This document shows, one piece after another, positions 35,996 to 52,482 of a stretch of DNA of 64,000 nt; the first letter of the stretch is position 1; every line of letters starts with the position of its first letter. The translations under genes were made by a program, and so were the position numbers. Source of the stretch: Salisaeta longa DSM 21114 (GTDB lineage Bacteria; Bacteroidota; Rhodothermia; Rhodothermales; Salinibacteraceae); assembly GCF_000419585.1 (NCBI RefSeq), contig NZ_ATTH01000001.1:332005-396004 (forward strand). Reading direction: 5' to 3'. The notes beneath the pieces were generated by a model. It was given only the letters and a program-made list of their open reading frames with translations, made no database searches and was not told where the DNA came from.

Positions 35996-36024
35996 TTGAC
36001 ATTGGTGGAAGCGCTTCCTACACT
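35996..36024 (+). promoter_or_regulatory. Sigma70-type promoter of the TonB-receptor operon
   Basis: TTGACA (35996-36001), 17 bases, then TACACT (36019-36024): a near-consensus -35/-10 pair with ideal spacing. The start point would be near 36031, giving an 85-base leader to the ATG at 36117. The rest of the 327 bases upstream of that ATG shows nothing else I can name. Confidence 0.7.
36007..36018. promoter_or_regulatory. LacI-type operator inside the promoter spacer
   Basis: GGAAGCGCTTCC is a perfect 12 bp palindrome with a central CG. It fills most of the spacer between the -35 and -10 boxes, where a bound repressor would block RNA polymerase. It is closely similar to the palindrome at the susC promoter (AAAGCGCTTT core at 22774-22783), so one regulator may control both. 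Confidence 0.65.
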
Positions 36025-36116
36025 TGATCCTAACGTTTGGTATTTTCCAAACACAACAAATATTGCCCATAGGGCAGGCAGCACGCAATCGTACCATAGA
36101 CGAGACGAGGACGGTC

Positions 36117-38609
36117 ATGAGGCATTGCATACAGTGGATGGGTTGGCTTTTGGTGGGGGTGTTGGCGCTTCCCCTCCCGGCGCACGCGCAAGACGCGGGC
36201 GTCTTGCAGGGCGTGGTAACGGATCAAGACACGCAGGAACCGCTGCCGGGGGCCAATGTCGTGCTCGACGGCACCCAGCGCGGGGCCAGCACCGACGCGG
36301 ACGGCGAGTACCGCATTGACGGCCTTCCGGCGGGCACCTACACGGTGCGCGTCACCTTTGTGGGCTACGAGCCGGCAACCCGTACGGTAGACATCGCGGC
36401 CGGCGAGACGGAAACCCTCGACCTGGTGCTCGCGCCGCGTACCTTCGTGGGGCAAGAGATTGTGGTGACGGGGTCGAAGCGGCCAGAGAAGCTGCTGGAG
36501 GCCCCGGTGACCATGGAGGCGATCAGCGCTGAGGAGCTGAACGTGAGCGGCGGCGGCACCTACCTCTCGGCGCTCTCCACCTTAAAAGGCGTCGACTTCG
36601 TGAACGTGGGCATCAACGGGCAGGGCATCTCGGCGCGTGGCTTCAACAACCACTTCAACACGCGTATGCTGCAAATGAAAGACGGACGCATCGCGCAGCT
36701 TCCGGGGACGGGCCTGCCGCAGGGCAACTTTCTGCCCACCTCGGGGCTCGACCTCAAAACCATCGAGGTGGTGGTGGGCCCAGCGGCTGCGCTGTATGGC
36801 CCCAACGCTCACACCGGCGTGGTGAACGTGATTACGAAGACACCCTGGGATCAGTCCGGCCTAGCGCTCGATGTGCGGGCCGGCCAGAACGACCTGGTGG
36901 ATGTAAACGGCCGCGTGGCCGGCATCATCAGCGAGGATTTTGGGTGGAAGGTCACCGGGCAGTACATGACGGCCACCGACTACCGTCCGCCAGTGGGCGG
37001 CCCCAACGCCACCATGGCCGATTCAACGCATTACTTTGGCACGTCCTTTCACGAAAGTGCGCTCGTTGAGAACTACGAGATTGAGTCCATTCGCACCGAG
37101 GCCAGCCTCTATTACCGCCTCGGCGACGACTGGGAGATCAACGGCGTGTACGGCTTCTCGCAGAACGACAACTTTGGGCTTACCAACAACGGCCGCAACC
37201 GCATCAAGGGATGGCAGGTGCAGTACCAGAGCCTTCAGCTGAGCAGCGAGAGCTGGTTTGCGCAGGCGACGCACACCTCCAACGATGCCGGAAATACGTA
37301 CCAGATCAACGGGGTGGCCACCAGCGCAACGGCCGTGATGCTGCAGGCCATGGCCAACGGCGCGTCGCCAAGCGAGGCGCGCCAGCAAGCCATCAATCAG
37401 CTGCCCGCATTGCGCGAGGCCAACCGGTTTGTGGACAACGGCGAGCTGTGGGACTCGGAGCTGCAGTACCGCACCACGTTCAGTGTGGGCGGCGGTAGCC
37501 TCGACCTCGTGACCGGCGGACAGTACCGCTACTACGCGCCCGACTCCGACGGCACGTTCCTCGCCGACGCCATTGGGCGCGACATCGACGCTACGGAGAT
37601 TGGCGGCTACCTGCAGCTGGACTACCGCCCCACCGATCGGCTGCGCATCAACCTGGCCGGTCGGGTAGACACCCACAGCGAGTACACCACCCAGTTCAGC
37701 CCGAAGGCCGCGCTGGTGTACACCGTGGCGAAGAATCATAACCTGCGTGCCACGTACAACCGCGCCTTCAAAAGCCCCACCGTGCTGGAAGGCAACCTGT
37801 TCATTCCCATTCCCGTGCCCAGCGTAGCGCCGGGGTACGTGGTGAATGCACTGGGGAACTACACCGGTTACGTCATCCAAGACCCCAGCGGCACCGTCAT
37901 CAACCGCATCGATCCGCTGGCGCCCGAGGAAGTAAACGCCGTCGAGTTGGGCTACAAAGGTGTGTTCGGCAAGCGGCTGTTCGTCGACGCGGTGCTGTAC
38001 AACTCGTGGTACAAAAACTTTATCAGCCCGCTCACCACCGTCGCCAACGGCATCACCCAAATTCCCTTTTACCCCGACGGCCAGCCGGTCGATGCGCCGG
38101 GTAACAACCAGTTCAACGCGCTGTCGACCTACCTCAACTTTGGGGAAGCGGTGGTGCAGGGCGCCGATCTGGGCGTTAACCTCTTTCTGGGGAATCACTT
38201 TAACGTGAACGTCAACGGCTCGTACATTTACCTGCGCAGCTTTGAGGAGAGCGAGAGCGGCCAGCGCCTCCTGCTGAATGTGCCCAATACGAAGCTCAAG
38301 GGCACCATGACGATGCGCGACGTGGGCCTCAAGAATTCGTTTCTGAGCCTCTCGGGCCGGTGGCACAGCGCGTACGAATTTCGCTCGGGCTACTGGGACA
38401 GCGCGCGGTTCTACGCGGATGGCGAGGTGCCCAGCCGGTTTACCGCGGGCCTTACGGCAGGCTACGCCCTCCCGGACTACGGCGTCGACCTGAAGCTCAG
38501 CGTCACGAACCTGTTCAACAACAAGCGGCCCGACGTGCTGGGCGCGCCCGTCACCGAGCGCCTGATCTGGTTGTCGGCCACCTACTCGTTTAAGGGGCTT
38601 CGCTTCTAA
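36117..38609 (+). CDS. TonB-dependent outer-membrane receptor
   Basis: 830 aa. The signal peptide ends at PAHAQ (~24). A carboxypeptidase-D-like domain (GVLQGVVTDQDTQEPLPGANV) covers ~25-110. The plug follows with VTGSKRPEKLLEAPVTMEAIS and VVVGPAAALYGPNAHTGVVNVIT. A 22-strand barrel fills the rest and ends with SATYSFKGLRF. It lacks the SusC plug signature and has no SusD partner, so it is a classic single-protein receptor. The ligand is unknown. The genes that follow suggest a carboxylic or fatty-acid-like compound. The ATG at 36117 has a GAGGA-like ribosome binding site. Confidence 0.93.
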   Translation: MRHCIQWMGWLLVGVLALPLPAHAQDAGVLQGVVTDQDTQEPLPGANVVLDGTQRGASTDADGEYRIDGLPAGTYTVRVTFVGYEPATRTVDIAAGETETLDLVLAPRTFVGQEIVVTGSKRPEKLLEAPVTMEAISAEELNVSGGGTYLSALSTLKGVDFVNVGINGQGISARGFNNHFNTRMLQMKDGRIAQLPGTGLPQGNFLPTSGLDLKTIEVVVGPAAALYGPNAHTGVVNVITKTPWDQSGLALDVRAGQNDLVDVNGRVAGIISEDFGWKVTGQYMTATDYRPPVGGPNATMADSTHYFGTSFHESALVENYEIESIRTEASLYYRLGDDWEINGVYGFSQNDNFGLTNNGRNRIKGWQVQYQSLQLSSESWFAQATHTSNDAGNTYQINGVATSATAVMLQAMANGASPSEARQQAINQLPALREANRFVDNGELWDSELQYRTTFSVGGGSLDLVTGGQYRYYAPDSDGTFLADAIGRDIDATEIGGYLQLDYRPTDRLRINLAGRVDTHSEYTTQFSPKAALVYTVAKNHNLRATYNRAFKSPTVLEGNLFIPIPVPSVAPGYVVNALGNYTGYVIQDPSGTVINRIDPLAPEEVNAVELGYKGVFGKRLFVDAVLYNSWYKNFISPLTTVANGITQIPFYPDGQPVDAPGNNQFNALSTYLNFGEAVVQGADLGVNLFLGNHFNVNVNGSYIYLRSFEESESGQRLLLNVPNTKLKGTMTMRDVGLKNSFLSLSGRWHSAYEFRSGYWDSARFYADGEVPSRFTAGLTAGYALPDYGVDLKLSVTNLFNNKRPDVLGAPVTERLIWLSATYSFKGLRF

Positions 38610-38693
38610 CACAATGGCCGGTGGTGCACCCGGAGCGGCGCGCCATCGGCCCCCTGGTCTCGTTTGCCTTCACCTGTTTAAGACCCACCATTT

Positions 38694-39440
38694 ATGGCTG
38701 CACCACTCACCGATCGCGTAGCCCTCATCACCGGCGGAAGTCAGGGCATTGGGCGCGCCACCGCGGCGTTATTTGCGCAGCGCGGCGCGCGCGTCATCAT
38801 CGCCGACGTAAACGAAGCCGCCGGCGCAGCGGCCGTGCAAGCGATTGAAGACAACGGCGGCACGGCGCAATTCGTGCCCACCGACGTCACCGACCGCGCC
38901 GCCACCGAGGCCCTCGCGGAGGCCGCGCAAGCAGCGTACGGCGCCCTTGACATCCTCGTCAACAATGCCGGCATCACGCGCGACGCCACCCTCGCCAAAA
39001 TGGACGGCGACGCGTTCGATGCGGTGGTCGACGTCAACCTGAAGGGCGTATTCAACACCACGAAGGCCGCGCTGCCGTATCTGCAAGGGAGCGCGCACGG
39101 CCGCATCCTGAACGCCGCCTCGGTGGTGGGGCTGTACGGCAACTTTGGCCAAACGAACTACGTGGCCTCCAAGTCGGGCGTCATTGGCATGACCAAGACG
39201 TGGGCCCGCGAGCTGGGGCGCGACGGCATCACCGTCAACGCGGTGGCGCCGGGCTTTATCGAGACGCCGATGGTGGAGACCGTGCCCGACAAGGTGATGG
39301 ATCGCCTCGTGAAGCAGACGCCGCTGGGGCGCCTGGGCCGGGCCGATGACATCGCCCGCGCCTATGCGTTTCTGGCGAGCGACGACGCGGCGTTCATCAC
39401 GGGCGCTGTATTGAGTGTCGACGGCGGGCTGGTGCTGTAA
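38694..39440 (+). CDS. FabG/PhaB-like 3-oxoacyl reductase
   Basis: 248 aa classical short-chain dehydrogenase. The cofactor motif is ITGGSQGIGRATA, the NNAG motif is present in LVNNAGITRD, the catalytic Ser is in LNAASVVG and the YxxxK pair in NYVASKSG. The C-terminus PGFIETPM and ITGAVLSVDGGL are FabG-like. It likely reduces a 3-oxoacyl-ACP or -CoA using NADPH. It comes 84 bases after the TonB receptor and 43 bases before the KAS III-like gene. It may be a dedicated reductase of this pathway, not the housekeeping FabG. Confidence 0.88.
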   Translation: MAAPLTDRVALITGGSQGIGRATAALFAQRGARVIIADVNEAAGAAAVQAIEDNGGTAQFVPTDVTDRAATEALAEAAQAAYGALDILVNNAGITRDATLAKMDGDAFDAVVDVNLKGVFNTTKAALPYLQGSAHGRILNAASVVGLYGNFGQTNYVASKSGVIGMTKTWARELGRDGITVNAVAPGFIETPMVETVPDKVMDRLVKQTPLGRLGRADDIARAYAFLASDDAAFITGAVLSVDGGLVL

Positions 39441-39483
39441 CGCGCCGCCCGTTCGCTACCCATCCACCCATCTTCCCCCTGCC

Positions 39484-40479
39484 ATGCGACACGCACAACT
39501 TCTGGGTACCGGCCTGTATGCGCCGGAGCACGTTGTGACCAACGATTACTTCGATGCCCTGTACGGCGAAGACGTCGACAGCTTCTTGCGCGCGAACCGC
39601 AACATCATCGAGCGGCGGTACGCCACCGACGAGCAATCGACCTCCGACCTGGCCGTAGAAGCCGCGCGCGACGCCCTCGCCGATGCGGGCGTAGCCCCCG
39701 ATGCCCTCGACCTCATCATCGTCTCCACCGACACCCCCGACTTCCTCTCGCCGTCTACCGCGGCCGTCGTGCAAGACAAGCTGAAGGCCCCAAACGCCGC
39801 GACGTTCGACCTGAACACGGCCTGCGCGGGGTTCGTGACGGCGCTCGACACGGCGCGCAAGTTCGTGGAGGCCGACGCGCGCTACCGCCGGGTGCTCGTC
39901 GTTGGCGCGTATCTGATGAGCCGCTTCATCGACTACGAGCAGAAAAACGTCGCGTCGCTCTTTGCCGATGGCGCCGGCGCGGCCGTGATCGGACCTACCG
40001 ATGATGCCCAACAGGGCGTGCTGGCTTCGGAGCTTATCTCGAAGGGCGAGTACCACAGCTACATGGGCGTGTACACCGGCGGCGCGGCCCGCCCCGTCAC
40101 CGACGCCCACGCCGAGCGCACCCAAAAACTGGCCTTCCGCAAGAAATTTCCCGACGGCTTCAACCCCGATCAGTGGACAACAATGGTGCGCACGCTGGCC
40201 GACCGGCTGGACGTAACGCCCGCCGCTGTGGATCGGTACTTCTTTACGCAGATCAACATCCAGAGCATCCGCGAGACGATGGACCGGCTGGGCCTCCCCC
40301 ACGACCGGGCGCACAACGTCATGGACCGTTTCGGCTACACGGGCAACGCGTGTGTGGCCATGGCGCTCGCCGATGCCGACGATCAGGGCCTGCTCGCGCC
40401 CGGCGACCTGATCTTTCTCATTGCCTCCGGCGGCGGCGCGGCCCTCGCGGGGATCGCGCTCCGCTGGCCGGCGCGCTAA
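39484..40479 (+). CDS. KAS III-like protein with changed active site
   Basis: 331 aa thiolase-fold protein of the beta-ketoacyl synthase III family. The nucleophile is kept: C114 in DLNTACAGFVTA. The other two residues of the Cys-His-Asn triad are not seen. The site of the usual HQAN reads TQIN (Thr255 in place of His), and the site of YGNTSA reads FGYTGNA (Tyr285 in place of Asn). Decarboxylative condensation is therefore doubtful; acyl transfer or thioester cleavage through Cys114 is possible. It stands between the FabG-like reductase and the Na+ symporter. The ATG at 39484 fits the fold start (HAQLLGTGLYAPE). Confidence 0.8.
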   Translation: MRHAQLLGTGLYAPEHVVTNDYFDALYGEDVDSFLRANRNIIERRYATDEQSTSDLAVEAARDALADAGVAPDALDLIIVSTDTPDFLSPSTAAVVQDKLKAPNAATFDLNTACAGFVTALDTARKFVEADARYRRVLVVGAYLMSRFIDYEQKNVASLFADGAGAAVIGPTDDAQQGVLASELISKGEYHSYMGVYTGGAARPVTDAHAERTQKLAFRKKFPDGFNPDQWTTMVRTLADRLDVTPAAVDRYFFTQINIQSIRETMDRLGLPHDRAHNVMDRFGYTGNACVAMALADADDQGLLAPGDLIFLIASGGGAALAGIALRWPAR

Positions 40480-40521
40480 CAACAGGCGCTGCGTGTTTTG
40501 CTTCCCTTCATCCAAGAGACC

Positions 40522-42014
40522 ATGACCGAAACGGCGATTGCCTGGACCTTTTTCGTGGGCTATCTGGTGCTGGTGGGCATCGCAGCCACCATCGGCATTC
40601 GCAAGATGTCGGGGTTTGATGCGTTCTCGGTGGGCAGCCGAAACGTGTCGCCCGTGCTGGTGGGGTTGTCGCTGGCGGCCAATCTGACGAGCGCCGCGAC
40701 GTTCATCATTAATCCCGGCCTCATCTACCTGTACGGCGTAAGCGGCGTCGTGGCCTACGCGATGGCGCTGCCGCTGGGCGTGTTCATTGGCCTTATCGTC
40801 TTCTCGAAGGCATTTCGGCGCGTGGGCGATACCGTAACCGCGCGCACGGTGCCGCAATGGATTGGCGATCGCTTTGGGGATCGGCGCCTCAAGGTCTTTT
40901 TTGCCGTCGCCAGTCTGCTGCAAATTGCCTTTCTGGTGCTCATCACCGTGGGGCTTACGCGCGTCCTGGCGAACGTTTTGGCGCTTCCCATGCTTGCGGC
41001 GATGGCGCTTACGCTGCTCATCCCGCTCGTGTACTTGTTTTGGGGCGGCGCCAGTGCGCACACGCTCACCAACGCCGCACAGTCGGTGCTCATGATAATG
41101 GTGGCGTTGCTGTTGCTCGCCAGCGGCGCCCACTACCTCGCCGACGGCCTCGACGGCTTCCTGGCGCAATTGGCAACCATCGACCCGGTGCTGGCGCAGC
41201 CAATTAACCCCCAGAGTCTGCTCTTTCGTGACTGGTTTGAGGTGGTGGTGGCAAACGTAGCCATCGGCATCGCCATCGTCAACCAGCCGCACGTCATGTC
41301 GAAGGCGCTCTACCTGAACAGCAAGCGCGATGTCAACACGTACCTCGCCACGGCCATCGGCGTGCTGGTGCTGTTCTTTTTGGTCATCGTGGTGGGCCTC
41401 TACGCGCGGCTTCTCATGCCGCAGGCGGGCCTCGCCCCCGACGCGGTGGTGCCCACCTACATCGTAGACGTCTTTGGGCCGGTGATGCGCTCGGTCATCC
41501 TCATCGGATTGGTGGCGGCGGGTTTTTCCACCATGGAGGGGTTGCTCGTGGCCCTCTCCACCATCTTCACCAACGACCTGTACCGCCCGTGGGCCGCGCG
41601 GCAGGAGCTGGCAGAAGACGTAATTGAGCGGCGGAGCCTCCGCTACAGCCGGCTCTTTCTGGTGGGCCTCGTCCCGGTGGTCGCGCTCATCAGCTACCAG
41701 CAGATTGTGGATCCGAACCTCTCGGTGGCCATCCTCGGCCAAAACGGCGTCTACGCCCTGTTTGCGGCCACGTTTGTGCCCATCCTGTTCGGCATTTTCT
41801 CGGATCGCATTCGCACCGGCACGGTGTTTCTGTCCGCCGTCGTCGCCCTGATCGTGCACTTTGGCATGTACTACGGCGAGGTGACGGTGTATGCCAACAA
41901 CCCGGCCGTACCGGCCTTCTGCGCGCTGGTGGCCAGCACGGCCGTGGCCCTCGTCGGGCAGGCGCTGCGCCCGGCCGATTCGCCTACGTCTGCAACGACC
42001 CCCGCAACGTCCTC

Positions 42015-42018
<4 letters not shown>
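40522..42018 (+). CDS. Sodium:solute symporter, SSS family
   Basis: 498 aa with about 13 membrane helices. Family features include SLAANLTSAATFIINPG at the first sodium-site helix, VPQWIGDRFGDRRLK, NVAIGIAIVNQPHVMSKAL, and GLVAAGFSTMEGLLVALSTIFTNDLY near the second sodium site. It brings a solute into the cytoplasm with Na+. Many SSS members carry carboxylates, sugars or proline. The next gene overlaps its stop by four bases (ATGA), so translation is coupled to the acyl-CoA synthetase, which points to a carboxylate as the cargo. Confidence 0.9.
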
Positions 42019-43529
<1,511 letters not shown>

Positions 43530-43587
43530 TCGGTGCCGCCGGTTACCGATCGCCCACTGCTCCCAACGTCAATACCCCCAAACGCCC

Positions 43588-44502
43588 ATGATTGCTCTTC
43601 TTATAGGTCTCGCGCTTATGACGCCTGCCCCCGATTCGCTTCCGCACTACCCGGCCGACGTGCAGCACGTGCAGGTGGGCGACTATCGCACGGCCTACGT
43701 GGACCGCGGCGACGGGCCGGTGCTGTTGTTTGTGCACGGGCTGGGCTCCAACCTGTCGCTTTGGCGGACGGCACTGGACACGTTTGCCGAAACGCATCGG
43801 GTGGTAGCGCTCGATCTGCCCGGCTTTGGACTCTCGGAGAAGGCCGACGTGCCGGCGACCATGCCGTTCTTTGCGCAGCACGTGGCGGCGTTTATGGACA
43901 CGCTGGGGATTGCGCGGGCGACGTACGTGGGCGTTTCGATGGGCGGGCAGGTGGGGCTTACGCTGGCGCTCTCTGCGGAGGCGCGCGTGGCGCGGATGGT
44001 GCTGGTGTCGCCGGCGGGCATCGAGCAATTTACCGCGGAGGAAGCCGCCACGCTCAAGCAGCTCACCACCCCGCAGGCCATCGCGCAGTCTACCGATGCG
44101 CAGGTGGCGCAAAGCGTGCGGGCCAACTTCGACACGTGGTCGCCCAAGCACCAGTGGCTGATCGAACAGCGGCATGCCCTTGCGCAGCGCGACGACTTTT
44201 CGGCGTATGCCGCGGCCAATGCGCGGGCGGTGGCGGGTATGCTCGACGGCGCGGTGTACGACCGCCTCGATACGCTCTCGATGCCCATGCTGGTGCTCTT
44301 TGGCGCCGGCGACCGGCTCATCCCGAATCCGTATTTGCATCCCGAGCAGACCATCGACGACGTGGCGGATGGTGCGCGCGCGGCGCTGCCGTCGGCTACC
44401 GTAACGGTGGTGGAGGACGCCGGGCACCTGCTCATGCTGGAGCGTCCCGCGGCCTTCCGTACCCACGTGCGCCCCTTCCTGCAACAGACGCGCACGCCCT
44501 AA
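43588..44502 (+). CDS. Alpha/beta hydrolase, MhpC/BphD-like
   Basis: 304 aa. The oxyanion region is LLFVHGLGSN, the nucleophile elbow is GVSMGGQ (Ser117), the acid is in FGAGDRLIP and the His in VEDAGHLLMLE. The N-terminus (MIALLIGLALMTPAP) is hydrophobic and may be a signal peptide or anchor. The closest types are hydrolases of cleaved aromatic rings and esterases. In the operon it would release a carboxylate before the ligase step, if it acts outside or in the periplasm. It follows the ligase by 58 bases. Confidence 0.85.
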   Translation: MIALLIGLALMTPAPDSLPHYPADVQHVQVGDYRTAYVDRGDGPVLLFVHGLGSNLSLWRTALDTFAETHRVVALDLPGFGLSEKADVPATMPFFAQHVAAFMDTLGIARATYVGVSMGGQVGLTLALSAEARVARMVLVSPAGIEQFTAEEAATLKQLTTPQAIAQSTDAQVAQSVRANFDTWSPKHQWLIEQRHALAQRDDFSAYAAANARAVAGMLDGAVYDRLDTLSMPMLVLFGAGDRLIPNPYLHPEQTIDDVADGARAALPSATVTVVEDAGHLLMLERPAAFRTHVRPFLQQTRTP

Positions 44503-44606
44503 GGCGCGCGCCGGGCGCTGACACGAGGCGCGCCCCACATCCAAACACTGACGCGCGTCGCGGGTCTATGGGAGAACACCCATCTGCTGCAGACCCCGGC
44601 TTGCCT

Positions 44607-45086
44607 ATGCCCCTCATTCGGCCCGCGCAGTCCGACGACCTCCCCACCGTGCGCGCCCTCTTCACGGCGTATGCCGAGGCCCTGGATTTTACGCTCGACT
44701 TTCAGGGCTTCCAGGAAGAGCTAGACGCCCTCCCGGCGCCCTACAGCGCCCCGGCGGGCACCATTCTTTTGGGCGAACTGGACGGAACCATTGCGGGCGT
44801 CGTTGCGCTCAAACCGCTGACGGTCGACGGCGCGGCAGACGCGGCGTGCGAGATGAAGCGGCTGTACGTGCGTCCGGCCTACCGGGGCTACGGCCTGGGC
44901 CGCACCCTGGGCGCAGCCATCGTGACGGCGGCCTGCGAGCGGGGCTATGCCGCCATGTACCTCGACACCGTCGCCTCGATGCACGCGGCCCGCGCGGTGT
45001 ACCGGTCGCTGGGCTTCTCGCGCACGGAGGCTTACTACCATAACCCGCTGCCCGATGTGGTGTACATGAAGCGTTCCCTCACCTAA
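44607..45086 (+). CDS. GNAT family N-acetyltransferase
   Basis: 159 aa. The acetyl-CoA loop is VRPAYRGYGLGRTLG (R/QxxGxG/A type). The fold runs from IRPAQSDDLPTVRALF through GVVALKPL and MKRLYVRPA to VYRSLGFSRTEAYYHNPL. It transfers an acetyl group to an amine of an unknown substrate. The ATG at 44607 starts at the fold; an in-frame ATG at 44568 is also possible. It lies 104 bases after the hydrolase and 12 bases before the first DUF192 gene. Confidence 0.85.
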   Translation: MPLIRPAQSDDLPTVRALFTAYAEALDFTLDFQGFQEELDALPAPYSAPAGTILLGELDGTIAGVVALKPLTVDGAADAACEMKRLYVRPAYRGYGLGRTLGAAIVTAACERGYAAMYLDTVASMHAARAVYRSLGFSRTEAYYHNPLPDVVYMKRSLT

Positions 45087-45098
45087 TCTCCCGTGTCT

Positions 45099-45584
45099 AT
45101 GGTTCGTTTGATGCTTGCGGCGTTCTTCTCCGGCGTGCTCTTTGCGCTGAGCGGCTGCACCCCCGATGCGGAGCCAACCGGCGACGCCGCCACCGGCTTC
45201 ACCGCCGAAGGGCGGCTTGCATTTCTGGCGCCACAGGGCGATACGCTGACGACCATCGCCATCGAAATTGCTGACACGCCCGACACGCGGGCCCGCGGAC
45301 TCATGCGCCGCCGCTCGCTGGGCTACAACCGGGGCATGCTGTTCATCTACGACGTGCCCGACACCAACGGCATGTGGATGAAAAACACCCCGCTGCCGCT
45401 CGACATCATCTTTGTGAATGAGCAGAAAGAGGTGATTAACATCGCGCGCCGCACCACGCCCTTCTCCGAGACGCCCATTCGTCCGGACCAGCCGGCGCTG
45501 TACGTGGTTGAGGTGCGCGCCGGGTTTGCGAAACGATTCGGCATCACGTCCGATACGCGCCTGCAGTGGACCCGCACGTCGTAG
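45099..45584 (+). CDS. DUF192 lipoprotein, first copy
   Basis: 161 aa. The lipoprotein signal ends in ALSGC. The DUF192 domain runs from IAIEIADTPDTRARGLMRR through RGMLFIYDVPDT to GMWMKNTPLPLDIIFVNEQK and INIARRTTPFSE, and the end of the fold is YVVEVRAGFAKRFGI. The function of the family is unknown; it occurs in many exported proteins. The next gene is a paralogue in tandem. GTG at 45093 is an alternative start. Confidence 0.85.
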   Translation: MVRLMLAAFFSGVLFALSGCTPDAEPTGDAATGFTAEGRLAFLAPQGDTLTTIAIEIADTPDTRARGLMRRRSLGYNRGMLFIYDVPDTNGMWMKNTPLPLDIIFVNEQKEVINIARRTTPFSETPIRPDQPALYVVEVRAGFAKRFGITSDTRLQWTRTS

Positions 45585-45610
45585 TTCCCCCGCACCGTTT
45601 GCCGCCTCGC

Positions 45611-46132
45611 ATGCTTGTACGCTCTCTTCTTCTCGCGCTCCTCGCTGGGTTGCTCCTTGGGGGATGCGCCAACGACGGGCAGCAGACGCCGCCCGCTTCG
45701 TCCTCGTCGGACGACACGGCCCGCACGATTCCCTTCGACCCCGAAGGCACGCTGGCCGTGCTGCAGGGCCGCGATACCACGGTCACGCTCACCATTGAAA
45801 TTGCCGAGACCGATTCGGCGCGCACGCGCGGGCTGATGGAGCGTACGTCGCTGCCGGAGCGCTCGGGGATGCTGTTTCCGTTTCCAGAGGAGCGCACGCA
45901 GAGCTTCTGGATGGCCAATACCCCGTTGCCGCTCGACATCATCTACATCAACAGCGACTCGCAGATCGTAGACATCGCCAAGTACACGCAGCCCTTCTCC
46001 TCGAAGAACATCACCTCGGATGCCCCCGCGCAGTATGTGCTGGAGGTATCCGCCGGGGTGGCCGATAGCTACGGCATTTTGGTGGGCGACGCGGTGCGGT
46101 GGACGCGCACCGAGCCGACCCAAACGCCCTAA
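45611..46132 (+). CDS. DUF192 lipoprotein, second copy
   Basis: 173 aa. Lipobox LLGGC. The domain pattern repeats that of the previous gene: IEIAETDSARTRGLMERTS, SGMLFPFPEE, FWMANTPLPLDIIYINSDS, KYTQPFSS and YVLEVSAGVADSYGI. The two copies are separated by 26 bases and are probably an old tandem duplication with clear divergence. A terminator follows, so this is the last gene of the run. Confidence 0.85.
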   Translation: MLVRSLLLALLAGLLLGGCANDGQQTPPASSSSDDTARTIPFDPEGTLAVLQGRDTTVTLTIEIAETDSARTRGLMERTSLPERSGMLFPFPEERTQSFWMANTPLPLDIIYINSDSQIVDIAKYTQPFSSKNITSDAPAQYVLEVSAGVADSYGILVGDAVRWTRTEPTQTP

Positions 46133-46153: not shown

Positions 46154-46182
46154 CAAAAGCCATCGCAGCCCATTGGCTTTTG
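46154..46182 (+). terminator. Terminator at the end of the nine-gene run
   Basis: CAAAAGCCA and TGGCTTTTG form a 9 bp stem with an 11 base loop, 21 bases after the second DUF192 stop. The T tract is within the stem. It separates this run from the SAM riboswitch at 46271. Confidence 0.5.
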
Positions 46183-46270
46183 CACAACGCGCAGATCGAG
46201 TACACGTTGGCGCTCGTGTTCTATCGATGCATTCCACAGCTTCCGCGTCCATGACGCGATGTTGACGCAT

Positions 46271-46377
46271 TCATCCAGAAGGGCGGAGGGATCAGGCCCC
46301 GCGATGCCCTGGCAACCGCTGGCGCTCATGCGCCGGAACGGTGCCACATCCTGCCTTGCCGTGGCAAGGAAAGATGA
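46271..46377 (+). promoter_or_regulatory. SAM-I (S-box) riboswitch
   Basis: The P1 stem is TCATC (46271-46275) paired with GATGA (46373-46377). Between them are the core strings AGAAGGGCGGAGGGATCAGG and CCCTGGCAACC of the SAM-I family, then a GGCGCTCATGCGCC stem, then GGTGCCACATCCTGCC and GGAAAGATGA. These match the SAM-I consensus in order. When SAM is bound, expression of the downstream gene should fall. A 7 bp stem GGGTGAG/CTCACCC at 46427-46460, before the ATG, may be part of the expression platform; I see no clear U tract. Confidence 0.9.
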
Positions 46378-46470
46378 CCACCAGCGCGCTCCGCGTACGT
46401 ATGCGGCGCATGGCTTCTGCACTTCTGGGTGAGCCCCTTACCGTCCTTTTGCTCTCACCCGCTCCCTGCA

Positions 46471-47832
46471 ATGACGTCTACCGATTCGCCGCGCGCCTCG
46501 GCTACGGCGCTGCTCCCGCTCGTTCTGTTTCTGGGCCTCTTCTTTGGCGTTGGGCTGTACCATCAGCTCAATGGCACCGACTACGCATTCTACCAGCTGA
46601 AATCGCCCGTGGCCATCCTGCCGGCGCTGGCCCTGTCGGTATGGCTGGGGCGCGAGCGCCTGGAGGAAACCTTCGACACGTTGCTGCGCGGCATCGGCGA
46701 CAAAAGCATCATCCTGATGTGCCTGATCTACCTGCTGGCCGGGGCGTTCTCGACGGTGATGGAAGCCATTGGCGGCGTTGCGGCGACGGTGAACCTTGGG
46801 CTGGCGTACGTGCCCTCGGCGCTGTTGCTGCCGGGCCTGTTCGTGATTAGCGCGTTTGTGGCTACAGCCATGGGTACGTCGATGGGCACGGTGGCCGCGG
46901 TGGCCCCCATCGCCGTGGGCCTCAGCACGTCCACCGACCTCTCGACGCCCCTTACGGTGGGCACGGTCATTGGCGGGGCGATGTTTGGCGACAACCTGTC
47001 GGTCATTTCCGATACCACAATCGCTGCCACCCGCACGCAGGGCTGCTCGATGCGCGACAAGTTTCGGGCCAATGTTGCCATCGCGGTGCCGGCGGCGCTG
47101 GTTACGGTGGTGGGCCTGGGCATTTGGGCCGATGCCCCGGCGCAGCCCACCGGCGGGGCCTACACGCTGGTGCAGGTGCTGCCGTACCTGGCGGTGCTGG
47201 GCCTGGCCGTCGCGGGCCTCAACGTGCTCATCGTGCTCAGCACCGGCCTCGTGCTGGCGGGCGGCGTCGGGCTGTGGGCGGCGGGCTACGGGTTGGGGAC
47301 GTACGCCAAAGACATCTACGCGGGCTTCGAGAGCATGATCGAAATCATGCTGCTGTCGATGCTGATTGGCGGCCTCGGCGCGCTCATGAAACAGCAAGGC
47401 GGCCTGCAGTGGATCACGAACCAGATCGTGGGCTTCACGCGTCGCGTGGCCGGAAAAGATCCGCGGGCGGGTGAGCTGGGCATCGGCGCGCTGGGCGCGT
47501 TGGGCGATGCGCTAACGGCCAACAATACCGTCTCGATCTTGCTGGCGGGCGACGTGGCCCGCTCCATTGCCGAGCGCCACAACATTTCCCCGGCACGCAG
47601 CGCCAGTATGCTCGACATCTTTGCCTGCGTGATGCAAGGGTCGCTGCCCTACGGCGCGCAGTTTCTGCTGGCGGGCTCCATCGCCGGGCTCTCGCCCCTG
47701 GCGCTGGTGGGCACCGTGCACTACACCTGGATCTTGGGCCTCTTTACGCTGGGCGCGATCTTTTGGGGCTTCCCCAAGCGCTACGCGGCGGTGCCTGCAT
47801 CGACCGTGCCGGCGGCTGCGGAGGCCTCTTGA
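46471..47832 (+). CDS. metT: NhaC-family transporter, probable methionine carrier MetT
   Basis: 453 aa with about 11 membrane helices. NhaC-family patterns are MGTSMGTVAAVAPIAVG, GGAMFGDNLSVISDTTIAATRTQG and GALGDALTANNTVSILLAG. NhaC proteins exchange Na+ for H+ or another solute. A branch of the family named MetT is known as a methionine transporter controlled by SAM riboswitches in other bacteria. The SAM-I riboswitch directly upstream is the main reason for the call. ATG at 46471 is chosen; GTG at 46429 is in frame but falls inside the leader hairpin. Confidence 0.83.
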   Translation: MTSTDSPRASATALLPLVLFLGLFFGVGLYHQLNGTDYAFYQLKSPVAILPALALSVWLGRERLEETFDTLLRGIGDKSIILMCLIYLLAGAFSTVMEAIGGVAATVNLGLAYVPSALLLPGLFVISAFVATAMGTSMGTVAAVAPIAVGLSTSTDLSTPLTVGTVIGGAMFGDNLSVISDTTIAATRTQGCSMRDKFRANVAIAVPAALVTVVGLGIWADAPAQPTGGAYTLVQVLPYLAVLGLAVAGLNVLIVLSTGLVLAGGVGLWAAGYGLGTYAKDIYAGFESMIEIMLLSMLIGGLGALMKQQGGLQWITNQIVGFTRRVAGKDPRAGELGIGALGALGDALTANNTVSILLAGDVARSIAERHNISPARSASMLDIFACVMQGSLPYGAQFLLAGSIAGLSPLALVGTVHYTWILGLFTLGAIFWGFPKRYAAVPASTVPAAAEAS

Positions 47833-47968
47833 CCGGCGCTGCGCTGCCGTCTATTGCAAAAGACGTGCAACGCACAACAGAGCGCGGGGGCCGGGGCTGC
47901 AAATGAAGGACGCAGCGCTTATGTTAATCATCCACCCGGATCTACTCTTCACGGATGCCTCGCTTCGT

Positions 47969-49708
47969 ATGCTGTTTGCCCGTCGCCTCTTTGCTGTGGC
48001 CTGTGCGCTACTTCTGGTGGGCGGAAGCCCGCTCAGCGCCCGCGCCCAAGACGACCCGTTGCCCGCGGTTACGCGCACGTTTGCCATCACCAATGCCCGC
48101 GTCGTGCAGGCGCCCGGCCAGGTGCTAGAGCGGGCCACGGTGGTGGTGCGCGACGGCCTCATCGAAGCGGTGGGCCCGTCGGTCGACATTCCCTTCGACG
48201 CGCAGCGCATCGCGGGCGACTCGCTCACCGTGTACGCCGGATTCATCGACGGATTCGGCCACATTGGCATCGACATGCCCAAGCCTAAGGAATACGACGT
48301 TGAGCGGCCGGGGAGTCCGCCGCCGGGACGCGCGGGCATCCAGCCGGAACGGCGGGCCGCTACGTTTTTGGATCCGTCGGATGCTTCGGTAGGGGCATGG
48401 CGCAAGATCGGCTTCACGACGGCGCACATTGCGCCCGAGGGGCAGATGCTCCCGGGGCAAGGGGCCGTGGCGCTGCTGGCTGGTGCACAGCCCAGCGCCA
48501 TGATTTTGGAAGCGCCCACGAGCCTGTACGCGCAGCTGGAAGGGTCGCGGGGCGACTGGAACTCGTCGGTCTACCCCAGCACCCCGATGGGCGTGCTGGC
48601 CCAATTCCGCCAGCTGTACCGCGAGACGGCGCGCCGCCGCACCCTCCTGCAGCAGTACGAAACGTCGCCGCGCGGCATGGAGCGCCCGCCGCACGATCCG
48701 CAGCACGACGCCTTGCTGCCGGTGGTGGCCGGCGAGCGTCCGGTGGCCTTCTTTAGCGAGGACGTTCTGGACATCCACCGCATCCTGGCCCTGAAGAACG
48801 AACTGGGCTTTCCGCTGATGCTCACCGGCCTCAACGAGTCGTTTCGGGCGGTGGAGGCGCTGCGGGATGCCGACGTTCCGCTCTTTTTGACCCTGGCGCT
48901 GCCCGATGCTCCCGATGCCGTGGTGGAGGACTCGGTGGCGGCCGCACCGGTCACGCCGGCGCCGCAGGGCAGCTTCTTTGAAACCGACCTTCGCACGCGC
49001 TCGCATGAAGACGTGGGGGCCGAGGCCGACGCGTTGCAGCGCCGCCTGAAGGCCGAGGTGCAGCGCTACTACGCAACGCCCGCTACGCTGCGCGGCGCCG
49101 GCCTGCGCTTCGGGTTTAGCTCCAAGAACGCAACGGCTACCGACGTGCGGGCCAACCTACGGCTGATGCTGCAGCATGGCCTCTCGGAAGACGCGGCCCT
49201 CGCGGCGCTCACCACCGATGCGGCCGCCCTGCTGGGCCTTAGCGACCGTCTGGGCACCGTCGAAGCGGGTAAAATCGCCAACCTGGTCGTTACCGATGGC
49301 AGCTACTTTGCGAAAGACACCAACGTAACCCACGTATTCGTCGAGGGCCGCGTGTTCGACTATAGCGCCGAGGAGGCGTCGGGCGGCGTCACGGCCTCGG
49401 TGGAGGCGTTGGTGGGTGCGTGGTCGTACAGCGTCGACACGCCGCAGCAAACGTTTACGGGCACCGTCACGCTGTCGGGCACGCAAGAGACGCTCAGCGG
49501 CACGATTACCTCGCCGGCGTCGGGCGAAGCAACCCCGCTGGAAGACCTCTCCTTTGACGGGACAACGCTCTCGTTTGCGTTTGATGCCGGCGAGATTGGC
49601 ACGGTCAGCTTCAGCGGAACCGTGCAGGGCGACACCGTCGATGGCTCGGCGTCGTCGTCGTACGGCACCTTCCCCATGATGCTCGAACGCACCGACGCGC
49701 CGCAGTAG
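47969..49708 (+). CDS. Exported amidohydrolase-fold protein, metal site lost
   Basis: 579 aa with signal peptide (MLFARRLFAVACALLL to SARAQ). The start of the fold (TFAITNARVVQAPGQVLERAT, then VYAGFIDGFGHIGID) and its end (GTVEAGKIANLVVTDGSYF) match imidazolonepropionase-like amidohydrolases. The HxH metal motif reads FGH. The other expected metal residues are not seen: FFSEDVLDIHR, LTGLNESFR and GFSSKNATATDVR replace the sites kept in the next gene. The C-terminal ~120 residues (SVDTPQQTFTGTVTLSG) form a separate beta-rich domain. The protein may be a non-enzymatic partner. Confidence 0.75.
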   Translation: MLFARRLFAVACALLLVGGSPLSARAQDDPLPAVTRTFAITNARVVQAPGQVLERATVVVRDGLIEAVGPSVDIPFDAQRIAGDSLTVYAGFIDGFGHIGIDMPKPKEYDVERPGSPPPGRAGIQPERRAATFLDPSDASVGAWRKIGFTTAHIAPEGQMLPGQGAVALLAGAQPSAMILEAPTSLYAQLEGSRGDWNSSVYPSTPMGVLAQFRQLYRETARRRTLLQQYETSPRGMERPPHDPQHDALLPVVAGERPVAFFSEDVLDIHRILALKNELGFPLMLTGLNESFRAVEALRDADVPLFLTLALPDAPDAVVEDSVAAAPVTPAPQGSFFETDLRTRSHEDVGAEADALQRRLKAEVQRYYATPATLRGAGLRFGFSSKNATATDVRANLRLMLQHGLSEDAALAALTTDAAALLGLSDRLGTVEAGKIANLVVTDGSYFAKDTNVTHVFVEGRVFDYSAEEASGGVTASVEALVGAWSYSVDTPQQTFTGTVTLSGTQETLSGTITSPASGEATPLEDLSFDGTTLSFAFDAGEIGTVSFSGTVQGDTVDGSASSSYGTFPMMLERTDAPQ

Positions 49709-49753
49709 CCACCGCCTGCTCCCGCTCGCTTCTTTTGGTACTTCTTTAAGCCC

Positions 49754-51133
49754 ATGACCCGACTGCTTCTCCTGCTCCTTTTCGTGCTTGCCGCTGCGCC
49801 TGCGCAGGCGCAAGACCTCCTGCGGGCCAATGCGCCCAACGATTGGCTGATCACCAACGCGACGGTGCTCACCGTCACCAACGGCGTCCAAGAATCGGCG
49901 GACATCCTGGTGCAAGATGGAAAAATTGCCGCGGTGGGCTCCAATCTCTCGGCGCCCGAGGGCATTGCGACGTACGACGCCAGCGGGCAATACGTGATGC
50001 CGGGCATTGTGGATGCGCATTCGCACATCGCCATCAGCAGCGTGAACGAAGCGACCGCGCCGGTGACGGCCCAGGTGGGCGTGGGCGACGTGCTCGATCC
50101 GTTCGACGTTGCGCTGTACCGCGCCCTGGCGGGCGGCGTTACTACCTCGCACGTGATGCACGGCTCGGCGAACGTGATTGGCGGGCAGAATGAGACGATC
50201 AAGCATCGCTACGGGGTGATCACGCCGGATGCGCTGCGATTGGAGGGCGCGCCGCGGACGATCAAGTTTGCGCTGGGCGAGAACCCGACGCGCGTGCATG
50301 GCGAGGGCAACGAGGTGGTGCCGCAGACGCGGATGGGCGTCGAGCAGGTGATCCGCACCACGTTCCATAAGGCGCAGCGATACATGGCAGCGCAGGCGGC
50401 CTACCGGAACGGCGAGCGCGACGCGCCGCCGCCCCACAGCGAGCGAATGGACGTTATCGCGGACATCTTGCGGGGCGAGGTACTGGTGCAATGCCACTCC
50501 TACCGCGCCGACGAAATCTACATGCTGATGGAGGTGTTTGAGGATTTTGGCGTGACGAACTACACGTTCCACCACGTCAACGAAGGATTTAAAGTGGCCC
50601 CCGAGCTCGCGGCGCACAACGCCGGGGCCTCCATCTTTTCCGACTGGTGGGCCTACAAGTTCGAAGTGTACTACTCGACGGCCTACAACGCCGCGATCCT
50701 GACGAAGAATGGCGTTACGACCTCCATCAACTCCGACTCGCCCGAGCTCAACCGGCACCTGTACCATGAGGCGGCCAAGGCGCAGCACTACGGCGGCCTC
50801 TCGGACACGCAGGCGCTGTCGCTCATCACGATTAACCCGGCGCGCCAGCTTGGCATTGCCGATCGGGTCGGCTCCATTGAAGTGGGCAAAGACGCGGATC
50901 TGGCCATCTTTAACCGCCACCCGCTATCCATTTATGCCATTGCGCAGCGCACGTATGTAGACGGCGTGGTGCGCTTTGATCGGCAGAATGACCCGGACGA
51001 TATGCGGCTGCGCGTGAACCCGGAGCGTCCCGTGGAAACGGCGTACGACTGGTCGGACACGGGCAAGCGCCACGGTAGCTGCATGCAGGGCACGGGCCTT
51101 CATGCCACGCAGCGCGGCCTGTACTTGAAGTAA
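49754..51133 (+). CDS. Exported amidohydrolase with intact metal site
   Basis: 459 aa with signal peptide (MTRLLLLLLFVLAAAPAQAQ). The HxH motif is DAHSHIAIS. The later metal residues are seen as His in LVQCHSYRADEI, His in TFHHVNEGFK and Asp in INSDSPELNRHL. The GQNETIKHRYG region fits the lysine position. It is an active imidazolonepropionase-like hydrolase of cyclic amides or peptides, likely periplasmic. It lies between two paralogues that lack these residues, with gaps of about 45 bases, so all three are probably cotranscribed. Confidence 0.85.
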   Translation: MTRLLLLLLFVLAAAPAQAQDLLRANAPNDWLITNATVLTVTNGVQESADILVQDGKIAAVGSNLSAPEGIATYDASGQYVMPGIVDAHSHIAISSVNEATAPVTAQVGVGDVLDPFDVALYRALAGGVTTSHVMHGSANVIGGQNETIKHRYGVITPDALRLEGAPRTIKFALGENPTRVHGEGNEVVPQTRMGVEQVIRTTFHKAQRYMAAQAAYRNGERDAPPPHSERMDVIADILRGEVLVQCHSYRADEIYMLMEVFEDFGVTNYTFHHVNEGFKVAPELAAHNAGASIFSDWWAYKFEVYYSTAYNAAILTKNGVTTSINSDSPELNRHLYHEAAKAQHYGGLSDTQALSLITINPARQLGIADRVGSIEVGKDADLAIFNRHPLSIYAIAQRTYVDGVVRFDRQNDPDDMRLRVNPERPVETAYDWSDTGKRHGSCMQGTGLHATQRGLYLK

Positions 51134-51174
51134 CGCCTCCCTCGCCGCTCGCTCTTTTACGGACCTCTTTTGCT

Positions 51175-52482
51175 ATGCGCCTCCTTCTTACGTTTTGCCT
51201 CACGCTCCTCCTCACCGCGCCGCTCGACGCGTCTGCACAAAAGACGCCCGGCCGGCAGGGCACCTTTGCGCTTACCAACGCGCGCCTCGTGACCGTTACG
51301 AGCGATACGATTTCCGGCGGTACCCTGGTCATCCGGGCCGATACCATCGCGGCCCTCGGGACGAACGTGGCGGTGCCCGACGATGCCGAAGTGATCGACT
51401 GCACCGGCCTCACCGTGTATCCGGGCCTGATTGACAGCGGCACGCGGCTGGGCCTGGTGGAGGTGGGCTCGCTCTCCGAGACGCGCGATTACAACGAAAT
51501 CGGCGATCTCACCGCGCACATGGACGCCCTTACGGCGGTAAATCCGAACTCGGTCAACATCCCGGTTACGCGGGTCAACGGCATCACCACGGTGCTCGCG
51601 GAGCCGTCGAACGGCTTGCTGCCGGGCGCGGCCTCCATGATTGACCTGCACGGCTACACGCCCGATCAGATGCACCGGAGCTTTACCGGGCAGGTGCTCA
51701 ACTTCCCGTCGACCGGCCGGCGCGGCTGGTGGGACGACCGCAGCCCGGAGGAAATTGAGAAGCAGGCCAAGAAGGCCATCAAGAAGCTCAGCGACGTGTG
51801 GGACCGGGCCGAGCTGTATGCGCGCATCGACTCGGCCGCTGCCGCGGGCGACCGGCGCGCGCCCACCTACGTGCCCAGCATGGAGGCGCTCCTCCCGGTG
51901 GTGCGGGGCGAGCAGGCGCTCATCATCAAGGCAAGCAAGGCCTCCGACATCACCAAGGCGCTGGAATGGGCCGCGGCGCGCGGCCTTACCGATCAGGTTA
52001 TTTTGAGCGGTGCGCAGGAGGGCTGGCGCGTGGCCGATGCCATTGCAGCCGCCGGCGTGCCGGTGCTCGTGGGGCCGGTGCTGTCTGTACCCACGCGGCC
52101 GTCGGACCGGTACGACAAGGCATACGCCAATCCGGGCTTGTTGGCCGAAGCCGGCGTGCAGCTTGCGATTCGCACCGGCGGCGCCGAGAACGTCCGTAAT
52201 TTGCCGTACAACGCCGGGTTTGCCGCGGCCTACGGGTTGGGCAAAGCCGCGGCGCTCAAAGCCGTGACCATCGCGCCGGCGCGCATCTTTGGCATTGCGG
52301 ACGCCGTCGGATCGCTGGAGGTGGGCAAGGTGGCGAACCTGTTTGTGACCAACGGCGACCCGTTTGAGACCACGACGCAGGTGCAGCACCTCTTTATTGA
52401 GGGCTACAAGCTGCCGCTGGAAAGCCGCCATACGAAGCTCTACGACGAGTTTCTGAACCGGAATCCGGGCGTCACCGAATAA
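51175..52482 (+). CDS. Exported amidohydrolase-fold protein, metal site lost
   Basis: 435 aa with signal peptide (ends DASAQ). The fold starts at FALTNARLVTVTSDTISGGT and ends VGSLEVGKVANLFVTNGDPFE. At the HxH position the sequence is DSGTRLG, so both histidines are lost. QALIIKASKASD, VILSGAQEGWRV and IRTGGAENVRN replace the remaining ligands. It is thus likely non-catalytic or uses another chemistry. Known pairs of an active and an inactive amidohydrolase exist in some phyla; whether it pairs with the previous gene is inference. Confidence 0.75.
   Translation: MRLLLTFCLTLLLTAPLDASAQKTPGRQGTFALTNARLVTVTSDTISGGTLVIRADTIAALGTNVAVPDDAEVIDCTGLTVYPGLIDSGTRLGLVEVGSLSETRDYNEIGDLTAHMDALTAVNPNSVNIPVTRVNGITTVLAEPSNGLLPGAASMIDLHGYTPDQMHRSFTGQVLNFPSTGRRGWWDDRSPEEIEKQAKKAIKKLSDVWDRAELYARIDSAAAAGDRRAPTYVPSMEALLPVVRGEQALIIKASKASDITKALEWAAARGLTDQVILSGAQEGWRVADAIAAAGVPVLVGPVLSVPTRPSDRYDKAYANPGLLAEAGVQLAIRTGGAENVRNLPYNAGFAAAYGLGKAAALKAVTIAPARIFGIADAVGSLEVGKVANLFVTNGDPFETTTQVQHLFIEGYKLPLESRHTKLYDEFLNRNPGVTE

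What the first reader, a model, noticed from the sequence alone, without database searches (positions are those of the whole stretch)
36117..46132. Nine-gene uptake and acyl-activation operon of unknown substrate
A TonB receptor, a FabG-like reductase, an altered KAS III-like protein, a Na+ symporter, an acyl-CoA ligase, an alpha/beta hydrolase, a GNAT protein and two DUF192 lipoproteins lie on one strand with gaps of 4-bp overlap to about 100 bp, and end at a terminator. The order fits import through the outer and inner membranes, CoA activation of a carboxylate and further acyl chemistry. I do not know a described pathway with this set.
Basis: inference. Interest (0 to 1): 0.65.

Follow-up and report, generated by a model that had tools for sequence, protein, structure and literature searches.

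The report
Regulated ester-uptake operon with altered ketosynthase
Six neighbouring genes form a switch-controlled set, shared by many bacteria, that appears to bring in an ester, cut out its acid and burn that acid, using a ketosynthase relative whose usual catalytic residues have been swapped; the substrate is unknown.

Summary
It is colinear in relatives across Rhodothermia; its core recurs in other Bacteroidota, Bdellovibrionota and a Chloroflexota plasmid. The GNAT and two DUF192 genes are local neighbours, found at none of 16 related loci.

Three things are new here. (1) The KAS III-like family replaces FabH's Cys-His-Asn with Cys-Thr-Tyr in all 78 sequences checked (one Thr->Ser) and forms one clade. 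(2) The 'FabG-like reductase' ends beta2 with Asp/Glu in 52/52 operons (NAD type), so it more likely oxidises. (3) A palindrome, GTTTGGTATTTTCCAAAC (36035-36052), just after a -35/-10 pair, is the only such site in this genome; its counterpart precedes the operon in 24 of 30 loci. In relatives a GbsR-like regulator gene usually follows; here the 70%-identical regulator lies 286 kb away.

Best reading: a dedicated regulon that hydrolyses an ester in the periplasm, imports the acid, makes its CoA thioester and degrades it, probably at the 3-hydroxy/3-keto level. Substrate and KAS reaction remain unproven.

The parts
35996..36024 (+). Predicted sigma-70-type promoter TTGACA-17-TACACT, with the palindrome GGAAGCGCTTCC (36007-36018) in its spacer
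   Evidence: best promoter-like match in the region; aligned at the same place upstream of TonB in L017, L019, L020 and L021. The inner palindrome alone is not enriched in the genome (5 copies against 4 for the control).
36035..36052 (.). Predicted operator GTTTGGTATTTTCCAAAC for the GbsR-like regulator
   Evidence: only site of this type in the window genome; same palindrome upstream of the operon in 19 of 30 loci (<=1 mismatch) or 24 of 30 (<=2), shuffles 0 and 0.03
36117..38609 (+). TonB-dependent receptor with CarboxypepD_reg domain (outer-membrane import)
   Evidence: Pfam; orthologues at the same place in 14 of 16 loci; a porin-like protein takes its role in many other Bacteroidota
38694..39440 (+). 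Short-chain dehydrogenase with NAD-type Asp38 and S143-Y156-K160
39484..40479 (+). KAS III-like protein with Cys114-Thr255-Tyr285 in place of Cys-His-Asn
40522..42018 (+). Sodium:solute symporter (SSF family)
   Evidence: Pfam; replaced by an MFS transporter in L077
42015..43529 (+). Acyl-CoA ligase (AMP-binding, ANL superfamily)
   Evidence: a CoA-transferase gene stands in this role in L100 and L140
43588..44502 (+). Alpha/beta hydrolase with a predicted export signal; Ser117-Asp242-His280
44568..45086 (+). GNAT acetyltransferase; neighbour, not part of the conserved module
   Evidence: Pfam; absent next to the operon in all 16 related loci
45093..45584 (+). DUF192 lipoprotein; neighbour, not part of the conserved module
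   Evidence: Pfam
45611..46132 (+). DUF192 lipoprotein; neighbour, not part of the conserved module
   Evidence: Pfam
46154..46182 (+). Hairpin at the end of the run, possible terminator
   Evidence: fold; not listed by the terminator scan

Best explanation
A dedicated catabolic regulon for one ester-borne carboxylic acid. The ester crosses the outer membrane through the TonB receptor (a porin-like protein in other Bacteroidota). The exported alpha/beta hydrolase cuts it in the periplasm, the Na+ symporter carries the free acid in, and the ligase makes its CoA thioester. The NAD-type dehydrogenase then oxidises a 3-hydroxyacyl-CoA to the 3-ketoacyl-CoA. The Cys-Thr-Tyr KAS III-like enzyme cleaves or transfers that acyl group through Cys114, most likely by retro-Claisen thiolysis with Tyr285 as the proton donor, and general beta-oxidation finishes the job. 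A GbsR-like repressor (encoded at 82 kb in this genome) holds the operon off at 36035-36052 until an inducer appears. Shown by sequence: gene order, families, the residue changes, export signals, the operator and its single copy. Inferred: direction of flow, the 3-hydroxy (or 2-enoyl) level of the substrate, the KAS reaction, and repression.
For: Colinear six-gene core across Rhodothermia families; SDR, KAS and ligase recur with exported hydrolases, an outer-membrane protein and a symporter in many Bacteroidota and without transporters in Bdellovibrionota. CoA activation is kept even when the enzyme family changes (CoA-transferase in L100 and L140). The SDR has the NAD-type acidic residue in 52/52 operons, while a true fatty-acid-synthesis SDR (L142) has Tyr. 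FabH's ACP-docking Arg is lost in every member. Degradative partners join in some genomes: MaoC hydratase (L032, L090, L094), thiolase (L040; L100), and ECH, 3HCDH, thioesterase and thiolase downstream on the same strand in L025. Operator and regulator. The window genome has 3 thiolases and 8 acyl-CoA dehydrogenase matches, so it can finish beta-oxidation.
Against: No substrate evidence; ligase and symporter families are too broad to name one. Loci with a real thiolase besides the KAS suggest the KAS may not be the thiolase. A Cys-Thr-Tyr set has no precedent known to me for thiolysis, which normally uses His and a second Cys. SDR is missing from the operon in L026, L029, L031 and L032. NAD preference is read from one motif only. 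The hydrolase looks cytosolic in the Chloroflexota locus.
Confidence: 0.45

Rival explanations
1. Hydroxycinnamate-type aromatic acid operon, like the Acinetobacter hca genes: an esterase frees ferulate- or coumarate-like acids, the ligase makes the cinnamoyl-CoA, and hydration, SDR oxidation and KAS cleavage give a benzoyl-type CoA.
For: Closest solved relatives of the ligase are 8weu (deposited as a fatty-acyl-CoA synthase) and 8wev (feruloyl-CoA synthetase). The layout of MarR-type regulator, transporter, ligase, porin and exported esterase resembles hca (my own knowledge). An MFS transporter with weak aromatic-acid-symporter similarity replaces the SSS in L077. Cinnamates need no acyl-CoA dehydrogenase, and MaoC is present in some operons.
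Against: No intradiol ring-cleavage dioxygenase in the window genome or most operon-bearing genomes tested. No aldolase-type ECH or vanillin dehydrogenase seen beside the core. The same ligase profile also matches FadD13 and MenE well.
Confidence: 0.15
2. PHA-oligomer or (R)-3-hydroxyalkanoate use specifically: the exported hydrolase cuts 3-hydroxyacid oligomers, then ligase, SDR and thiolase-like KAS act. This is a narrower form of the best explanation.
For: Enzyme kinds match PHA chemistry: FabG-type SDR, MaoC (PhaJ-like) and a PhaA/AtoB-type thiolase in L040. The core is widespread in Bdellovibrionota, where Bdellovibrio meets PHA inside prey (PMC4834554). An SCFA-type transporter lies downstream in L086.
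Against: Only weak matches of the hydrolase to PHA depolymerase models. I know of no TonB receptor for PHA oligomers. No direct test.
Confidence: 0.15
3. Fatty-acid-synthesis priming: an imported acid is activated to acyl-CoA, loaded by a FabH-like enzyme and reduced by a FabG-like enzyme to make unusual lipids.
For: FabH fold (Z about 45 to FabH) and a FabG-like SDR over one NCBIfam FabG cut-off; SDR and KAS genes are usually neighbours.
Against: Decarboxylation residues His and Asn are both gone, the ACP-docking Arg is gone, and the SDR is NAD type. The genome has its own FabH-type proteins. No acyl carrier protein or FabD was seen at the loci.
Confidence: 0.1
4. Ole-like biosynthesis of a beta-lactone, olefin or ketone: thiolase-fold enzyme (OleA), hydrolase (OleB), ligase-like beta-lactone synthetase (OleC) and SDR (OleD).
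For: The four core families SDR, KAS, ligase and hydrolase match the Ole set in kind (my own knowledge); OleA-type structures are weak matches (for example 3fk5 at 7e-14).
Against: KAS lacks the His and Asn that OleA keeps, the hydrolase is exported, the SDR is the short FabG type, and a CoA-transferase can stand in for the ligase, which would not fit a lactone synthetase. Transporters and an outer-membrane receptor point to uptake.
Confidence: 0.05
5. A chance run of unrelated genes on one strand.
For: The last three genes (44568-46132) behave this way.
Against: Six-gene order kept across families; one shared operator.
Confidence: 0.02

Closest known systems
FabH (beta-ketoacyl-ACP synthase III)
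   Same: Fold (Z 45), about 33% identity, catalytic Cys and glycine-rich loop
   Different: His->Thr, Asn->Tyr and ACP-docking Arg lost in every member; sits in an uptake operon
KS III-like acyltransferases CerJ and ChlB3, and DpsC
   Same: KS III fold turned to acyl transfer through the active-site residue
   Different: They use Cys-His-Asp or Ser-His-His (PMC9573744); this family has no invariant His at all
PRK06840-type 3-oxoacyl-ACP synthase
   Same: A second KAS III-like gene next to this family in L040 and L140
   Different: Separate deep branch with a different active-site set
GbsR/CudC-type MarR regulators (choline, betaine)
   Same: The regulator's best named match is CudC (49 bits, cut-off 218)
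   Different: Linked to a carboxylate-type operon; the GbsR family study saw no consistent process for Bacteroidetes members (PMC6207618)
Acinetobacter hca hydroxycinnamate operon (own knowledge)
   Same: MarR-type regulator, porin, transporter, CoA ligase and exported esterase
   Different: No ECH/aldolase plus aldehyde dehydrogenase; SDR plus KAS instead; no intradiol dioxygenase in this genome
SusC-type polysaccharide loci
   Same: TonB receptor with CarboxypepD_reg domain
   Different: No SusD and no glycan enzymes in the module

Membership tests
FabH / KAS III (decarboxylating) | Cys-His-Asn active site | tested here: not met
   Cys-Thr-Tyr in 78 of 78 translated sequences, one with Ser for Thr
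FabH / KAS III (decarboxylating) | KAS III fold | tested here: met
   AlphaFold model pLDDT 87.7, Z about 45 to FabH over about 315 residues
FabH / KAS III (decarboxylating) | Arg for ACP docking (E. coli Arg249) | tested here: not met
   N, L, Q, G, D, T, E or H in the family; Arg in FabH controls
KS III-like acyltransferase (CerJ/ChlB3) | Cys-His-Asp triad | tested here: not met
   No invariant His in the family alignment; triad from PMC9573744
Thiolase | Active-site His at the place of FabH Asn | tested here: not met
   Tyr285 stands there in every member; the protein may still work like a thiolase
FabG (NADPH 3-oxoacyl-ACP reductase) | NADP-type (non-acidic) residue at the end of beta2 | tested here: not met
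   Asp in 49 and Glu in 3 of 52 operon SDRs
FabG (NADPH 3-oxoacyl-ACP reductase) | Score above FabG equivalog cut-offs | tested here: inconclusive
   306.8 bits against 296 for NF004198 but 292.1 against 297.75 for TIGR01830
Acyl-CoA ligase (ANL) | AMP-binding motifs and C-terminal domain with the GK motif | tested here: met
   Pfam PF00501 and PF13193; TSGTT-PKG and the C-terminal GK invariant
GbsR/CudC regulator | CudC equivalog score | tested here: not met
   49 bits against cut-off 218; only GbsR-like
Ole (OleABCD) | OleA active site with His and Asn | tested here: not met
Ole (OleABCD) | OleC beta-lactone synthetase activity | not testable with these tools
   needs enzymology
hca-type hydroxycinnamate operon | Ring-cleavage route in the genome | tested here: inconclusive
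   No PF00775 match in the window genome; extradiol and other routes not tested

The most novel reading that the evidence does not exclude
The Cys-Thr-Tyr KAS III-like family is a new kind of carbon-carbon cleaving (retro-Claisen) or CoA acyl-transfer enzyme that works without His, serving an undescribed ester-acid catabolic pathway, under a GbsR-type repressor in Bacteroidota, and present also in Bdellovibrionota and Chloroflexota.
Probability: 0.35. Interest if true: 0.8.

Novelty: new variant of a known kind. Interest (0 to 1): 0.6.

Why it matters
It gives a testable role to a GbsR-type regulator group in Bacteroidota for which the family study found no consistent process (PMC6207618). It marks a KAS III branch, likely annotated across many genomes as fatty-acid synthesis, that lacks the residues needed for that reaction. 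A single operator in the genome, a known start site and cultivated relatives (Rhodothermus-like, Longimonas, Salinivenus, Bdellovibrio-like) make the substrate findable.

Tried and rejected
Nine-gene unit: rejected, last three genes not conserved. LacI-type control through GGAAGCGCTTCC: not supported as a regulon, 5 genome copies against 4 for the control. Glycan (SusCD) locus: no SusD seen. Intradiol aromatic route: no PF00775 in the genome. Betaine/carnitine metabolism suggested by the GbsR-like regulator: no specific support found. Other operator hits in G052 and G037 lie among unrelated genes. Papers: no described pathway with this gene set found; the library is partial. Structure neighbours gave only FabH-like folds, no substrate clue. 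The symporter matched no informative solved structure. An L040 stretch between KAS and symporter has no clean reading frame in the frame tried.
Full report
What is there. Spacings run from a 4-bp overlap to 84 bp. Upstream, a TTGACA-17-TACACT pair (35996-36024) is the best promoter-like match in the region. Downstream, a hairpin at 46154-46182 and an S-box riboswitch at 46268-46380 close the run.

Which genes belong together. The window genome is a 3.4-Mb genome whose close named relatives include Longimonas halophila and Salinivenus iranica, i.e. Rhodothermia. The KAS protein has clear orthologues (56-75% identity) in 16 of 60 relatives searched, well separated from ordinary FabH-type matches at about 38% or less, two contig-edge fragments aside. 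Around these 16 loci the order TonB, SDR, KAS, SSS, ligase, hydrolase is kept: KAS, symporter, ligase and hydrolase follow each other in all 16, with extra genes before the hydrolase in L032. TonB is in place in 14 (L023 is cut by a contig end, L032 lacks it), and SDR in 11 (absent in L026, L029, L031 and L032; L023 is cut). The GNAT and DUF192 genes appear in none. The conserved module is therefore 36117-44502.

How far it reaches. With a family profile, 56 of 394 genomes of the phylum, 40 of 195 of the class and about 42 of 241 Bdellovibrionota genomes have a member. Outside Rhodothermales-type genomes the usual layout is GbsR-like regulator, SDR, KAS, symporter (sometimes MFS), ligase, sometimes MaoC, a small lipoprotein-like gene, a porin-like outer-membrane protein, and hydrolase. 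Bdellovibrionota keep SDR, KAS, ligase and hydrolases without transporters. A Chloroflexota plasmid has SDR, KAS, CoA-transferase, thiolase, OB-fold protein, hydrolase and an ABC importer. CoA activation is thus constant while its enzyme changes.

The altered KAS III. FabH uses Cys-His-Asn. In this family the Cys stays (TACAGF) but His becomes Thr (FFTQIN) and Asn becomes Tyr (GYTG) in all 78 translated sequences, one with Ser for Thr. The Arg that docks ACP in FabH is also lost. The 31 family members put in a tree form one branch (support 96/96). The fold is still FabH. Described KS III-like acyltransferases keep a His (PMC9573744); this family has no invariant His. So it should not decarboxylate malonyl-ACP in the known way; acyl transfer or thiolysis on CoA substrates is more likely (inference).

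The dehydrogenase. The residue that ends beta2 is Asp in 49 and Glu in 3 of 52 operon SDRs, the NAD-binding type by the established rule for classical SDRs, while a true fatty-acid-synthesis SDR (L142) has Tyr there. NAD use points to oxidation.

The hydrolase. Orthologues start with a signal peptide or lipobox and keep Ser-Asp-His. Ester cleavage outside the cytoplasm, before the symporter, is the natural reading.

Degradative company. MaoC hydratase (L032, L090, L094), thiolase (L040, L100) and, in L025, ECH, 3-hydroxyacyl-CoA dehydrogenase, thioesterase and thiolase lie beside the module. I saw no acyl-CoA dehydrogenase among the neighbours examined, which fits a substrate that already carries a 3-hydroxy group or a 2,3 double bond. 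The window genome has 3 thiolases and 8 acyl-CoA dehydrogenase matches elsewhere.

The switch. Comparing upstream DNA revealed GTTTGGTATTTTCCAAAC at 36035-36052, just after the -10 box. It is the only such site in this genome; in relatives nearly all sites lie at this operon. In 30 related upstream regions, 19 carry it with at most one mismatch and 24 with at most two, against 0 and 0.03 in shuffles; the pattern was drawn from some of the same sequences, so the margin is somewhat flattered. In most relatives the first gene is a GbsR-like regulator; here its 70%-identical orthologue sits at C1:82291-82773, behind a TRAP transporter whose binding protein resembles TakP and a ketoacid-binding protein. 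Operator kept, regulator moved: fair evidence that the pair works in trans. The GbsR family study found no consistent process for Bacteroidetes members (PMC6207618).

Substrate. Open. Ligase relatives include feruloyl- and fatty-acyl-CoA synthetases. No intradiol dioxygenase occurs in the window genome, which weakens but does not exclude an aromatic acid. A 3-hydroxy acid freed from an ester, such as a PHA oligomer, fits the enzymes best but is not shown.

Verdict. A real, dedicated, widely shared regulon with a non-standard KAS III family. Membership in the FabH, thiolase, CerJ/ChlB3 and Ole families fails on active-site tests; the enzyme may still work like a thiolase.

Noticed in passing
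window 46268-46380 and 46471-47832: S-box (SAM) riboswitch directly upstream of an NhaC-family transporter, a likely methionine-linked transporter.
   Followed up: partly
L146:6289-10183 (G000:C1 about 78.9-82.8 kb): TakP-type TRAP transporter genes followed by the GbsR-like regulator whose predicted operator lies in front of the window operon; then two S46-type peptidase-like genes.
   Followed up: yes
window 38616-38651: Strong GC hairpin between TonB receptor and SDR genes (z -2.46), no T-run; could set a lower level for the downstream genes.
   Followed up: no
window 36007-36018: Palindrome GGAAGCGCTTCC between -35 and -10, also kept (or as GAAAGCGCTTTC) in several relatives; looks like a LacI-type or catabolite-control site.
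   Followed up: partly
window 47903-52482: Three consecutive amidohydrolase-like genes.
   Followed up: no
L082, L086, L087, L088: A TPR-like protein of about 464-481 aa recurs near the module in these four genomes.
   Followed up: no
L040:9646-10668 and L140: Second KAS III-like gene (PRK06840 type) with a thiolase-like GHxG motif beside the Cys-Thr-Tyr KAS.
   Followed up: partly
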